Source: a virus | DNA length: 32,921 nt | Virus record (IMG/VR): IMGVR_UViG_3300042448_000241 | Span: 1 to 32,921 of that record | Direction: 5' to 3' (one strand) | Shown: piece by piece, positions 25,858 to 31,278 of the stretch | Position numbering within the stretch: position 1 is the first letter of the stretch | Layout: each line of letters starts with the position of its first letter | Notes under the pieces: generated by a model | What the model was told of the DNA's origin: nothing | The model's input: only the letters and a program-made list of their open reading frames with translations | Database searches by the model: none | Translations under genes and position numbers: made by a program

Positions 25858-26586
25858 ATGTCAAAAGCACAGCAACCAATTGATGGCGTACAAGGTAAGG
25901 ACTGGAAAGTCACTAGCCTTATGGGTAACAGGATTCACCCTGTAACCAAGCAACCTAAACATCACAACGGAACCGATATCTGGTCCCCTAACGAGCCTTG
26001 CTGGATTGAAGCACCTTTTGACGGCACTGTAGTAGAAGCCCGTAAGTCAACCGCTCCTGGCGGTGGCTTTGGTAACTTTGTCACCCTATCTCACAAGATC
26101 AACGGTGAAGACTACGTGACTGTTTACGCTCACATGCTTGATGACTCAATCAAGGTAACTCCAGGACAGAAGATTACCGCTGGAACCCCACTAGGCAAGA
26201 TGGGTTCAACTGGTATGTCAACTGGCAAGCACCTTCACTGGGAGCTTCAGAAAGCTAAGAAATACGCTTGGAATGCAACTGGCCTAAACTTTATTGAGCC
26301 TGTTGCTTTCTTTGACGCACTGATCAAATTAGAAGCCGTCAAGGGAACAGCCAAGATTGAAACCGCACCAGATGCACCTGCTGCTCCAGCTCCAGTACAC
26401 AGCGCAGCAGCACCTGCTCCTAAGCCAGCACCTGCTACACCTGCTGGAACCTACACCGTTGTTAGAGGCGACAACCTGACTAGAATTGCTGCTCGCTTTG
26501 GCACTACAGTTGCCAAGCTTGTAGAAATAAACGGGATAAAAAACGCTAACTTGATCAATGTTGGTCAAGTACTCAAACTAGGTTAA
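25858..26586 (+). CDS. Endolysin: M23 peptidase with LysM domain
   Basis: This 242-residue protein has an N-terminal LytM/M23 zinc metallopeptidase (about residues 15-135). Its zinc ligands are in HHNGTD (H36 and D40) and HLHWE (H127), with H125 as catalytic partner, and it has YAHM at 90-93. A proline/alanine-rich linker (about 165-197) leads to a single LysM domain (198-242: TYTVVRGDNLTRIAARFGTT). M23 enzymes cut peptide cross-bridges in peptidoglycan, and LysM binds the glycan. No signal peptide is seen, so release needs a holin. AGGAG precedes the ATG. A virion-bound wall hydrolase is possible, but its place before a holin-like gene favours lysis. Confidence 0.88.
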   Translation: MSKAQQPIDGVQGKDWKVTSLMGNRIHPVTKQPKHHNGTDIWSPNEPCWIEAPFDGTVVEARKSTAPGGGFGNFVTLSHKINGEDYVTVYAHMLDDSIKVTPGQKITAGTPLGKMGSTGMSTGKHLHWELQKAKKYAWNATGLNFIEPVAFFDALIKLEAVKGTAKIETAPDAPAAPAPVHSAAAPAPKPAPATPAGTYTVVRGDNLTRIAARFGTTVAKLVEINGIKNANLINVGQVLKLG

Positions 26587-26594
26587 GGATAAAT

Positions 26595-26876
26595 ATGATT
26601 TGGTTAGACATCGCTAGAAGAACCGTAGCTGTTATCATTTTGAAGGTCACTGGTATCTTCGTTGGTGGAGCTGTTATTGGCCTAGAGGTTATGGATGCTG
26701 TAGCTATGGCAGCCTTCGCAGGTCTTATGGACGTTGGACAAGAGCTATCACGCTCTTACCTATCCGACGGCAGACTAGACCCTGAAGAGATCAACAAGAG
26801 CTTCGGTAAGATTGCTGACGCCTCAAACAAGGGCAGGGCAACTGAAGAGGCTCCTAAGGACCCTGAAGGCCTGTAA
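26595..26876 (+). CDS. Putative holin
   Basis: This 93-residue protein lies eight bases after the endolysin stop. It has one long or two short hydrophobic segments (about residues 8-48: VAVIILKVTGIFVGGAVIGLE and VAMAAFAGLMDV), then a polar, charged C-terminus (RLDPEEINKSF, EEAPKDPEGL). Size, membrane segment, hydrophilic tail and position after the endolysin fit a holin that would open the membrane to the cytoplasmic M23 enzyme. Holin families vary so much that the call rests on context. Confidence 0.6.
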   Translation: MIWLDIARRTVAVIILKVTGIFVGGAVIGLEVMDAVAMAAFAGLMDVGQELSRSYLSDGRLDPEEINKSFGKIADASNKGRATEEAPKDPEGL

Positions 26877-26896
26877 ACACGCTGCTTTTTAGGTAC

Positions 26897-26924
26897 TTGA
26901 CACGCCTGCTCAGCAGGCTAGGCT
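26897..26924 (+). promoter_or_regulatory. Promoter of the HTH-phosphoesterase pair
   Basis: A perfect TTGACA (26897-26902), a 16-base spacer and TAGGCT (26919-26924, fitting TAnnnT) form the best promoter in the window. Transcription would start near 26931, leaving about 25 bases before the ATG at 26957, with AAGGAG in between. It lies in the 80-base gap after the putative holin gene. Confidence 0.7.
26904..26918. promoter_or_regulatory. Inverted repeat in the promoter spacer (operator candidate)
   Basis: GCCTGC-TCA-GCAGGC is a perfect 6-bp inverted repeat filling almost the whole 16-base spacer. With no T-run after it, it is not an intrinsic terminator. A dimeric protein bound here would block the promoter. 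Confidence 0.55.
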
Positions 26925-26956
26925 AAACCTTGAAGTAATACATGAAGGAGACGATC

Positions 26957-27181
26957 ATGCTAAAAGGCCTTACCCCGCCTGAAAAAGAATACATCTGCGC
27001 GTTCATTAGATCTGCCGTAGATAAGCTAGACAAGGACGACTACAAGATCCTTGAGCAGAACCTTGCTGACAGTAGATGGAACCATGCCAAGTTAGCCGAA
27101 GCGCTAAATGAGCGTGGCTTTAAGTGCTACGCTGATCAAGTGAGACTACACAGAACGGGCAGGTGTGTTTGTGCTAAGTGA
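26957..27181 (+). CDS. Small HTH-like DNA-binding protein
   Basis: The start at 26957 (MLKGLTPPEKEY) is chosen for AAGGAG eight bases upstream; a start 15 bases earlier would lose it. The 74-residue product ends with a helix-turn-helix-like segment (RWNHAKLAEALNERGFKCYADQVRLHRTGRCVC, about residues 40-72, written as NHAKLAEALNERGF and QVRLHRTGRC). This 'LAxALxERGF...HRxGxC' pattern is familiar in actinophage HTH proteins. It overlaps the phosphoesterase gene by 17 bases, which suggests coupling. It might repress its own promoter, act as a small terminase-like protein or regulate late genes. No test separates these here. Confidence 0.65.
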   Translation: MLKGLTPPEKEYICAFIRSAVDKLDKDDYKILEQNLADSRWNHAKLAEALNERGFKCYADQVRLHRTGRCVCAK

Positions 27182-28136
27182 TCTAACTCCAAAGCCTAAG
27201 TGGGATCTGGTTCAGCCAGCTAAGCCTGTTTATATAAACAATCCTAAAGAGCCCAAGAAGCTAAAGACTAAGCACAAGGTATGGTCAATACTTCCTGACC
27301 CGCAGATCGGCTATCGCCATATCGACGGACAGTGGCTACCATTCCATGACGAAGCAGCTATGGATGTAGCGCTTCAGATTACTAACTGGCTTTACCATAA
27401 CGATCGCGTCGATGGCGTAATAAACCTAGGGGACTTTTTGGATCTACCAAGCCAAGGTCGCTTTGAGCAAGAGGCAGCATTCGCTGGCACTACTCAAGCA
27501 GCATTCGACAGAGGCCATAAATTTTTACAAGAGCAGCGAGCTGCAGCTGGACCGCAGGCTGAGATTGTTCTCATCGAAGGTAATCATGACCGCCGTATGG
27601 AGAAGTTTGTTATGATTAACGCAGCTAGCGCATGGGGCCTGAAGCGTGCAAACATTGATGAGCTTCCCGTGATGAGCATTCCTTATTTGCTGAGACTTGA
27701 TGAAATTGGAGTTGAGTACATCGATGCCTATCCAGCAGGAGCCTACTGGCTTACCGAAAACCTCAGAGCTATCCATGGTAACAAAGTTAGATCAGGTGGA
27801 TCTACCGCAGCCGCTTACACCAACGCAGACCCACACATCTCTACAATCTTTGGACATGTCCACAGACAAGAGCTTCAGTCCAAGACCGTCTTTAACCGTG
27901 ACGGATCTATTAAGTCTGTCGCCGTCAGTCCAGGCTGCCTTTGCCGAGTCGATGGAGCAGTGCCTAGCGTTAATGGATCAACGCACATTGACGGCAAATC
28001 AGCGCAATACTTTGAAAACTGGCAACAAGGAGTCACGGTCGTAACGATCGAGGATAACCAAGCATTCTTTGAGCTAGTGCAGATCAATAACGGCGTGGCT
28101 TACTTCAGAGGACAGAAGTTTAAATCTACTTTGTAG
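27165..28136 (+). CDS. Calcineurin-like metallophosphoesterase
   Basis: This 323-residue protein has the two-metal motifs of the calcineurin-like superfamily: D45-P-Q47 with H52, GD-F-L-D at 89-93, GNHD at 139-142, H204 and GHVH at 230-233. The start is GTG at 27165 or more likely GTG at 27171, which has AGG at seven bases. The family cleaves phosphomono- or diesters, including RNA, DNA ends and cyclic nucleotides, so the substrate is unknown. It is co-transcribed with the HTH protein. It could be an anti-defence enzyme or a DNA-metabolism factor. Its end overlaps the convergent HNH gene by 11 bases. Confidence 0.85.
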   Translation: MFVLSDLTPKPKWDLVQPAKPVYINNPKEPKKLKTKHKVWSILPDPQIGYRHIDGQWLPFHDEAAMDVALQITNWLYHNDRVDGVINLGDFLDLPSQGRFEQEAAFAGTTQAAFDRGHKFLQEQRAAAGPQAEIVLIEGNHDRRMEKFVMINAASAWGLKRANIDELPVMSIPYLLRLDEIGVEYIDAYPAGAYWLTENLRAIHGNKVRSGGSTAAAYTNADPHISTIFGHVHRQELQSKTVFNRDGSIKSVAVSPGCLCRVDGAVPSVNGSTHIDGKSAQYFENWQQGVTVVTIEDNQAFFELVQINNGVAYFRGQKFKSTL

Positions 28137-28743
28137 CATCCTCTACACGGCGCTTCTCAGCCTCTAGCAGCTCTTGAGTAGTAGCCTTCGTAACGGCGTC
28201 ATGCGACTCGTACGGGCCGTCAGGGACAAATGGTAGTGTCTGGTTAGGTCTATCACCGTAATGCGGGTCATTAGCCCCGTGCCAAGTATTGTGGCAGTAG
28301 GAGCAGATCCTATGAACATTACCAGGAGCGTTGTTCATTGTGTTCTTATCTGGGCCGTGATGCCTATCGGTAGCAGCTCTACCAATACATCCAACGATTG
28401 GCACTACGCCACCGCCAGCAAACTTTAGATTAGCCCACTCGCAAATCATTCCAACTTCGATTGGATACATTTCTGCAGCACGCTTACGGCCTGTTGAGAT
28501 TGGATCTTTGTAGCTACCAATATCCTTGGTGCCACCATAACCATCTTCTATGTAGCCAGTGTCGGTCGAGGAGGCTGAGTCGGAAAGGGGGACGACACCA
28601 GCCTCCTTGACCTCGCCTGTAGGGGTGAATACAAGTTTGCCACCGCAGCAGCAATCTTGAGTGAAGCTATCAGCCCAAGCCTGTTCGCATTCATTACAGT
28701 GCCCTGCGCGGCAGAGAAAGCAGTACTCACTTCCAGTACTCAT
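28126..28743 (-). CDS. HNH endonuclease with N-terminal zinc ribbon
   Basis: This 205-residue protein has an N-terminal cysteine-rich zinc-binding segment (C8, C11, C16, C19, then CCC at 31-33). A linker follows (about 45-85). The C-terminal HNH domain has DRHH at 126-129, N142, H144, the zinc pair C147 and C150, and H151. HNH nucleases are common in phage replication modules and act in DNA nicking, packaging or homing; the extra zinc ribbon may recognise DNA. The ATG overlaps the primase stop by 17 bases. It is the last gene of the replication operon. Its end overlaps the phosphoesterase tail to tail. Confidence 0.8.
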   Translation of the reverse strand: MSTGSEYCFLCRAGHCNECEQAWADSFTQDCCCGGKLVFTPTGEVKEAGVVPLSDSASSTDTGYIEDGYGGTKDIGSYKDPISTGRKRAAEMYPIEVGMICEWANLKFAGGGVVPIVGCIGRAATDRHHGPDKNTMNNAPGNVHRICSYCHNTWHGANDPHYGDRPNQTLPFVPDGPYESHDAVTKATTQELLEAEKRRVEDATK

Positions 28744-31233: not shown

Positions 31234-31278
31234 AGGGTGTGGGTGCCGATCAAGGAGGGAGGTAGATCGGCACCCACT
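31234..31278 (-). terminator. Intrinsic terminator or attenuator before the primase gene
   Basis: A perfect 13-bp stem (GTGGGTGCCGATC at 31240-31252 and its complement at 31266-31278) encloses a 13-base loop. On the minus strand it is followed by ACCCTATTTTTTACG, a T-run five bases beyond the stem. It lies 28 bases after the SSB-like stop codon and before the primase ATG, so it would reduce primase expression relative to SSB. The loop on the minus strand reads TACCTCCCTCCTT. Confidence 0.7.

What the first reader, a model, noticed from the sequence alone, without database searches (positions are those of the whole stretch)
26897..26956. Near-consensus promoter whose spacer is an inverted repeat, driving an HTH-phosphoesterase pair
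TTGACA-N16-TAGGCT is the best promoter seen, and GCCTGC-TCA-GCAGGC fills the spacer. The first gene encodes an HTH-like protein. This fits a self-regulated or host-repressed two-gene unit placed after lysis genes, possibly an early-expressed accessory or anti-defence cassette transcribed separately from its late neighbours.
Basis: partly seen in the sequence, partly recalled or inferred. Interest (0 to 1): 0.55.

Follow-up and report, generated by a model that had tools for sequence, protein, structure and literature searches.

The report
Promoter for phage HTH-phosphoesterase gene pair
An uncultured phage, probably of actinobacteria, has a conserved promoter driving two linked genes, a small DNA-binding-type protein and a nuclease-like phosphoesterase that travel together in many phages, but the inverted repeat in that promoter is not a conserved binding site for the small protein.

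Summary
In detail: TTGACA (26897-26902), a 16-nt spacer holding GCCTGCT-C-AGCAGGC (26904-26918), TAGGCT (26919-26924). In 11 close phages TTGACA is kept 11/11 and the block from TAGGCT to the start codon is 94% identical against 65% at third codon positions, so the promoter is credible. The spacer drifts like neutral DNA (61%), yet such promoters are enriched for inverted repeats of differing sequence and axis (0 of 1000 shuffles). The small protein's recognition segment stays QVRLHR while the repeat changes, so autorepression through this repeat is unlikely. The pair itself is widespread: an HTH gene lies just upstream of the phosphoesterase in 77 of 80 phage loci examined, and C14/H65/C70/C72 are present in every full-length member of 100 distinct HTH sequences. 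The same HTH family also precedes a second, MRE11-like protein family. Best reading: a DNA-binding partner plus an Mre11/PolD-DP1-like phosphoesterase, with its own promoter. A fused form in other phages is only suggested.

The parts
26897..26902 (+). -35 hexamer TTGACA
   Evidence: Sequence; identical in 11 of 11 close phages incl. the window; TTGACA-N14..20-TAGGCT in 10 of 18 records, once each except one record with two
26904..26918 (.). Spacer inverted repeat GCCTGCT-C-AGCAGGC, 7-nt arms
   Evidence: sequence not conserved; inverted repeats as a class enriched in 17 representative promoters, 0 of 1000 shuffles
26919..26924 (+). -10 hexamer TAGGCT
   Evidence: 10 of 11 close phages; L014 has TAGAGT
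26919..26956 (+). Conserved -10/leader block up to the start codon
   Evidence: Mean pairwise identity 94.2% against 64.6% at third codon positions in 11 phages
26945..26950 (+). Shine-Dalgarno AAGGAG, 6 nt before the ATG at 26957
   Evidence: Sequence; identical in the 11 leaders printed
26957..27181 (+). 74-aa HTH-type protein with candidate metal site C14, H65, C70, C72
27165..28136 (+). Calcineurin-like metallophosphoesterase, Mre11/PolD-DP1-type fold; overlaps the HTH gene, likely start GTG at 27171
   Evidence: phrog_20266 E 1.4e-96; five motifs invariant in 22 of 22; PDB matches Z 13-16
26876..26883 (+). RACACGCY octamer upstream of -35, role unknown
   Evidence: 17 of 69 unique upstream regions of this type hold it, 0.31 expected by shuffle; motif chosen after seeing the data, and many of the 17 are close relatives

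Best explanation
A sigma-A-type promoter (TTGACA-N16-TAGGCT) starts a dedicated two-gene transcript at the junction between the late/lysis block and the convergent replication block. The first gene makes a small HTH protein with a Cys-His-Cys-Cys site, probably for zinc; the second, translated from an overlapping start, makes an Mre11/PolD-DP1-like metallophosphoesterase. The two work as one unit: the HTH protein is the nucleic-acid-binding partner of the phosphoesterase and brings it to phage or host DNA, most likely for replication, recombination or host-DNA processing. The spacer repeat is a lineage-specific dyad that may tune promoter access through some factor other than the HTH protein. 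Shown: promoter conservation, gene pairing, conservation of the active site and of the Cys/His site, fold of the enzyme. Inferred: physical complex, DNA binding, metal binding, nuclease activity, timing, role of the dyad.
For: Promoter and leader conserved. HTH gene within 600 nt upstream of the phosphoesterase in 77 of 80 loci fetched with the phosphoesterase alone (the 80 are the best of 133 found). Conversely, of 89 loci fetched with two HTH queries, 21 have this phosphoesterase and 64 the phrog_284 MRE11-like protein next; 2 had no room and 2 no HTH-profile hit (not de-duplicated by contig). Constant HTH with two enzyme families that barely match in sequence. C14 in 100 of 100 and H65, C70, C72 in 99 of 100 distinct HTH sequences; the one miss is L166, cut by its contig end. 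Motifs DPQ, GDxxD, GNHD, HG and GHxH invariant in 22 of 22. VIA-align Z 16.4 to PolD DP1 and 14.6 to Mre11. Suggestive only: CxxC/SIRRH N-termini on the phosphoesterases of CN1A, Necrophoxinus, ISF9 and on OlinDD gp29.
Against: No binding, complex or activity data. The HTH model has no PDB match at E<=0.001, so DNA binding rests on the helical pattern and weak profile hits. That the N-termini of CN1A-type enzymes are the same domain is not borne out: HTH-profile E-values 0.0055 (Necrophoxinus) to 0.69 (CN1A) in a 5-sequence search, and hhalign probability 30% over 28 columns. Three of 80 loci lack the upstream HTH gene (L057, L058, L061). The HTH profiles were built from members of these loci, so the 77 of 80 is not an independent test; an earlier profile with one member (L060) of the distant group already found the gene in that group. 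Read-through from the lysis genes is not excluded: no plus-strand terminator-like site was listed between them and the promoter.
Confidence: 0.55

Rival explanations
1. One reading: the 74-aa protein binds the spacer repeat and represses its own promoter.
For: HTH first gene next to a promoter dyad; inverted repeats recur in this promoter more than shuffles give.
Against: Recognition segment QVRLHR identical in 11 of 11 while spacers are 61% identical; repeats change sequence, arm length and axis; 6 of 17 representatives have only 4-nt arms, at chance level; other near-copies of the repeat in the window are at chance level (4 found in all, 2.66 expected).
Confidence: 0.1
2. The dyad is an operator for another, fast-changing regulator (phage repressor or host factor), each phage having its own specificity.
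For: Enrichment of dyads with lineage-specific sequence; AGCCT, an inverted copy of the -10, in 5 of 17 spacers, 0.4 expected, 0 of 3000 shuffles (motif picked after seeing the data). Precedent: cluster K ESAS inverted repeats whose consensus differs by subcluster (PMC3203893, passages).
Against: Distances between half-sites vary (gaps of about 2 to 14 nt, read), unlike one dimer site; usually one such promoter per record; no integrase in 18 records, so no sign of lysogenic immunity.
Confidence: 0.25
3. Counter-defence/host takeover: an early nuclease pair that damages host DNA or blocks defence, like A10ZJ24 Gp48.
For: Gp48 is early, degrades DNA and is counter-defensive (PMC12287305: abstract, passages, section 11); host-type promoter; MRE11-type proteins of Amelie, Waterfoul and Hammy toxic on over-expression (PMC11797047, passages); [quoted passage not shown]).
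Against: P0002 is only distantly related to cluster A phosphoesterases (26.5%, E 1e-8), and Altman gp54 has no such HTH gene directly before it by eye, only an annotated DNA-binding protein two genes on; Bxb1 gp47 of the same cluster is described as lacking phosphoesterase activity.
Confidence: 0.25
4. Recombination directionality factor for a serine integrase (Bxb1 gp47 type).
For: Distant homology; record H37 is annotated as an RDF.
Against: No PF00239 or PF00589 match in any of 18 records, 12 of them 42-46 kb long, with controls ringing in 10 and 14 of 14 genomes.
Confidence: 0.03
5. The window's repeat is chance within a GC-rich spacer next to a fixed AGGCTAGGCT.
For: Single-site p 0.016-0.021; spacer evolves like neutral sites.
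Against: Class enrichment, 0 of 1000 for both shuffle types; arms of 7 nt or more in 7 of 17 against 1.3% of random 34-mers. The 17 are related phages and the test was framed after seeing the repeats.
Confidence: 0.25

Closest known systems
phrog_20266 metallo-phosphoesterases (Clavibacter phage CN1A gp33; Microbacterium phages)
   Same: P0002 matches phrog_20266 at E 1.4e-96, and these phage proteins at 43-52% identity; in CN1A also right after holin genes
   Different: There a CxxC/SIRRH N-terminal region is in the same polypeptide (homology to P0001 not established); here the HTH protein is a separate upstream gene
Small gene + MRE11/phrog_284 gene pairs (Pontimonas phage phiPsal1 052/053, TM4 gp35/gp36, Propionibacterium phage PHL152M00 gp27/gp26)
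   Same: Small HTH-type gene overlapping a phosphoesterase gene
   Different: Different phosphoesterase family; HTH match strong only for phiPsal1 (E 1.5e-17), weak for the others in a 15-protein search. A different, larger HTH gene lies downstream in TM4 (gp38) and SqueakyClean (gp45)
Cluster A phosphoesterases (Bxb1 gp47 RDF, A10ZJ24 Gp48)
   Same: Same phosphoesterase superfamily, tblastn E 1e-8 to Altman and Kanely
   Different: 255 aa in Altman, no adjacent HTH partner seen there; no integrase here
Cluster K extended start-associated sequences (ESAS)
   Same: Inverted repeats just upstream of phage genes with lineage-specific sequence (PMC3203893, passages)
   Different: ESAS are 17-bp imperfect repeats in many copies and tied to a 13-bp start sequence; here usually one promoter per record, repeat inside its spacer

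Membership tests
Calcineurin-like metallophosphoesterase | Five metal-binding motifs (D-x-H/Q, GDxxD, GNHD/E, H, GHxH) | tested here: met
   D45-P-Q47, G89D90xxD93, G139NHD, H204, G230HxH invariant in 22 of 22 (motif names recalled); motif I has Q instead of H
Calcineurin-like metallophosphoesterase | Pfam gathering score for PF00149/PF12850 | tested here: not met
   17.0 of 21.5 and 19.7 of 27 bits; the motif, PHROG and fold evidence carry the assignment instead
Mre11/SbcD nuclease | Mre11-type fold | tested here: inconclusive
   Z 13-14.6 to Mre11/SbcD, 16.4 to PolD DP1, about 13 to LpxH; Foldseek itself ranks purple acid phosphatases and Vps29 first: superfamily level only
Mre11/SbcD nuclease | Partner ATPase Rad50/SbcC | not tested
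   No search for an SbcC/Rad50 gene was made in these records
Serine-integrase RDF (Bxb1 gp47 type) | Cognate serine integrase in the phage | tested here: not met
   0 of 18 records for PF00239; control positive in 10 of 14 genomes; records may be fragments
Autorepressor-operator pair | Operator conserved with the recognition helix | tested here: not met
   Segment QVRLHR 11 of 11; spacer 61%
Autorepressor-operator pair | Protein binds the repeat | not testable with these tools
   Needs a gel-shift
Sigma-A promoter | -35/-10 hexamers at usual spacing, under constraint | tested here: met
   TTGACA 11/11, TAGGCT 10/11; spacer 16 nt in 9 of 11, 15 nt in L002 and L006. The simple sigma-70 consensus scan did not list it
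Zinc-binding HTH | Four conserved Cys/His residues | tested here: met
   C 100/100; H, C, C 99/100, the miss being a sequence cut by its contig end
Zinc-binding HTH | Bound metal | not testable with these tools
   Needs metal analysis or a structure
Cluster K ESAS | 13-bp start-associated sequence and multiple copies | tested here: not met
   Leader reads TGAAGGAGACGATC; other near-copies of the repeat in the window are at chance level

The most novel reading that the evidence does not exclude
A Cys/His-site HTH protein is an obligate targeting subunit shared by two phosphoesterase nucleases, hardly alike in sequence, across phages of actinobacteria: an undescribed two-part phage nuclease used for host takeover or counter-defence, with expression set by rapidly re-invented dyads in its control region.
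Probability: 0.3. Interest if true: 0.7.

Novelty: new variant of a known kind. Interest (0 to 1): 0.48.

Why it matters
Relatives of the two phosphoesterase families were found in 471 and 805 phage records (overlap not checked), and one related group has a member reported as counter-defensive. A constant small HTH partner with a near-invariant Cys/His site gives a concrete, testable binding partner. The promoter adds a case in which hexamers and leader are fixed while the spacer changes sequence yet shows inverted repeats more often than shuffles do.

Tried and rejected
Autorepression through the spacer repeat: rejected on recognition-segment/spacer conservation. Intrinsic terminator: no T run after the repeat; RNA folds z -1.0, -1.2 and -0.8 for three stretches; the 11 close-group 70-nt upstream regions have mean z -0.3. 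Known RNA element: no Rfam hit at gathering score. RDF role: no integrase. Similar phage in the phage collection: none for 26500-28500 by distant blastn; P0001 none by tblastn. P0002 in bacterial genomes: 22 stretches matched a pattern, none encodes a relative, so the host is not identified. Sequence search of the PDB: best P0001-family hit RpoN, E 0.046; P0002 nothing credible. Fold of P0001: no PDB match at E<=0.001; in BFVD one match at E<=0.001, an uncharacterised phage protein. Literature for the HTH-phosphoesterase pairing: searches listed nothing that names it; I saw listings, passages of PMC12287305, PMC3706429, PMC3203893, PMC11797047 and PMC13148394, and one section of the first.

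Rows dropped: L016 left out of the 11-phage comparison (partial gene, spacer nearly the window's); L003 and L007-L009 (duplicates of L002 and L006) left out; 25 TAGGCT promoters collapsed to 17 by similarity, where L014 was aligned on an upstream TAGGCT because its own -10 is TAGAGT; A3 used 25 of 29 distal leaders. The first shuffle test used boundaries set by eye; one search repeats it by rule.

Full report
What is there. The window is a 32,921-base IMG/VR virus record. The first ORF is 74 aa; the second overlaps it (27165-28136; the GTG at 27171 recurs in the close relatives printed) and is a calcineurin-like phosphoesterase (phrog_20266, E 1.4e-96). Upstream lie an M23/LysM endolysin and a 93-aa protein; downstream, convergent, lie a 205-aa protein, a primase/helicase-like protein and, further on, a phrog_1674 exonuclease. 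The host is probably an actinobacterium: the phosphoesterase's relatives among deposited phages are in Mycobacterium, Streptomyces, Microbacterium, Clavibacter and Thermobifida phages, and the best portal matches are in Cellulosimicrobium and Arthrobacter phages, though 13 of 26 portal matches are Bacillus phages. This is not proven; no bacterial genome encoded a relative of P0002.

Is the promoter real? A consensus scan gives no excess of promoters in the right part of the window and misses this one because TAGGCT shares only 3 of 6 bases with TATAAT. Comparison is decisive instead. Fifteen loci carry a relative of the 74-aa gene. In 11 non-redundant close phages, window included, TTGACA is identical in 11 and TAGGCT in 10; the 38 nt from TAGGCT to the start codon average 94.2% identity, while third codon positions of the gene average 64.6% and the spacer 61.2% (37 equal-length pairs). 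TTGACA-N14..20-TAGGCT is found in 10 of 18 records, once each except one with two; the eight without it are records of more distant relatives. Upstream genes differ between relatives (for example L015, L038 and L050) while the pair stays (8 loci), so the promoter belongs to the pair.

Is the repeat meaningful? Alone it is modest (p about 0.02). As a class, inverted repeats are enriched: 17 representatives of 25 TAGGCT-type promoters sum to 97 arm bases against 66.8 (sd 3.6, base shuffles) and 71.3 (sd 3.5, dinucleotide shuffles), 0 of 1000 each; arms of 7 nt or more occur in 7 of 17 against 1.3% of random 34-mers. The test was framed after the repeats had been seen and treats related phages as independent. 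In 5 of 17 the left arm is AGCCT, an inverted copy of the -10 (0.4 expected; 0 of 3000; motif also picked afterwards). But sequence, arm length and axis differ even between phages with 86-92% identical HTH proteins, gaps vary, and 6 of the 17 have only 4-nt arms, at chance level. One shared operator for the HTH protein does not fit: its recognition segment is QVRLHR in 11 of 11. A more distant group (L062-L095) has instead a TATAAT-like box followed directly by a strong hairpin before the HTH gene: 29 of 29 leaders fold with z below -2, and in 25 aligned leaders 8 of 10 predicted pairs show changes on both sides that keep the pair. A middle group is mixed (4 of 11 below -2, mean -2.0), the close group is not structured as RNA (0 of 11, mean -0.3), and leaders of the phrog_284-type loci show no excess (1 of 39, mean 0.05). 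So dyads recur in the control regions of the phrog_20266-type pairs in different positions; why is not explained.

What are the genes? An AlphaFold2 model of the 74-aa protein is confident (pLDDT 91; four helices) but has no PDB fold match at E<=0.001. Across 100 distinct family sequences, themselves gathered by profile at E<1e-8, C14 is present in 100 and H65, C70 and C72 in 99 each; the one miss is L166, cut by its contig end. This suggests a metal site; metal is inferred. Of 80 loci fetched with the phosphoesterase alone (the best of 133), 77 have this HTH gene within 600 nt upstream (exceptions L057, L058, L061). Of 89 loci fetched with HTH queries, 64 are followed by a phrog_284 'exonuclease'/MRE11-like protein, 21 by the window's family, 2 run off the contig and 2 had no HTH-profile hit (not de-duplicated by contig). 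Nine representatives of the second family match phrog_284 (E 2e-31 to 5e-62); Pfam sees only sub-threshold phosphoesterase matches in 3 of 7 and none in the other 4, but deposited relatives are annotated metallophosphoesterase, exonuclease or MRE11, among other labels. The two families match each other only weakly (hhalign probability 22%, E 9.5e-4).

Is there a fused form? In Clavibacter CN1A, Microbacterium Necrophoxinus, ISF9 and OlinDD the phosphoesterase begins with a CxxC...SIRRH region. It looks HTH-like by eye, but the HTH profile gives E 0.0055 for Necrophoxinus, 0.12 OlinDD, 0.16 ISF9 and 0.69 CN1A in a 5-sequence search, and hhalign 30% probability over 28 columns. The fusion is therefore suggestive only. 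Among small genes just before a phosphoesterase in other cultured phages, phiPsal1_052 matches the HTH profile at E 1.5e-17, PHL152 gp27 at 7e-7, Footloose gp64, TM4 gp35 and SqueakyClean gp42 at 1e-4 to 3e-3, and Minerva gp166 at 0.047 (15 proteins searched, so these are lenient).

The phosphoesterase keeps all five motifs in 22 of 22 sequences, with Q in place of H in motif I. Its model (pLDDT 81.5, pTM 0.83) is nearest to PolD DP1 (Z 16.4) and Mre11 (14.6), with LpxH at about 13; Foldseek alone ranks purple acid phosphatases first, at low TM-scores. Superfamily membership is firm and the substrate open. It misses the Pfam gathering scores.

How it most likely works. A host-type RNA polymerase starts just after TAGGCT and makes a short two-gene message; the HTH protein is made first and the phosphoesterase from an overlapping start. 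Constant partnership and partner swapping suggest one functional unit in which the HTH protein guides the enzyme to DNA. Candidate outcomes are phage DNA processing, host DNA breakdown or counter-defence. The last has a published precedent in a distantly related group: A10ZJ24 Gp48 is early, degrades DNA and offsets host defence (PMC12287305: abstract, passages and section 11), while Bxb1 gp47 is described there as an RDF without phosphoesterase activity. An RDF role here is disfavoured: no integrase in 18 records.

Verdict. Observation confirmed; interpretation partly supported. The spacer repeat is not the HTH protein's conserved operator. The durable finding is the widespread HTH-phosphoesterase pair with, in this group, its own conserved promoter; I found no paper that names the pairing (searches; open-licence library only).

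Noticed in passing
L062-L095 upstream of the HTH gene (e.g. L064:3369-3433): A TATAAT-like box followed at once by a strong hairpin: 29 of 29 leaders fold with z below -2; 8 of 10 pairs show compensatory changes in 25 aligned leaders. Possibly a 5'-UTR stem-loop or terminator.
   Followed up: partly
26876-26883 and relatives: RACACGCY octamer in 17 of 69 upstream regions (0.31 expected), starting 19-24 nt before TTGACA in the close phages that have it there (in L014 it only overlaps TTGACA); GACACGCC also upstream of the HTH gene in Pontimonas phage phiPsal1. Eight copies in the window, 3.2 expected.
   Followed up: partly
31239-31277, minus strand: A 13-bp perfect inverted repeat followed by a T run between the 209-aa gene and the primase gene, a good intrinsic terminator candidate.
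   Followed up: no
26595-26876: 93-aa protein matching a PHROG labelled 'nuclease' (phrog_26427, E 1.6e-12) but sitting between endolysin and promoter with a hydrophobic stretch; holin-like by impression, so the label may be wrong.
   Followed up: no
L059 and L062-L096: Phosphoesterases of this distant group carry an extra N-terminal segment (in most read: SI(D/E)KLLKANGLTP...) although a separate HTH gene also lies upstream.
   Followed up: no
L097 (CN1A), L099 (CN77), L196 (TM4): The phosphoesterase follows holin genes directly in CN1A and CN77, and TM4 gp35/gp36 lie a few genes after the holin gp31.
   Followed up: partly
window, both strands: TTGACA is over-represented: 32 copies against 20.8 expected, 0 of 100 shuffles reach it.
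   Followed up: no
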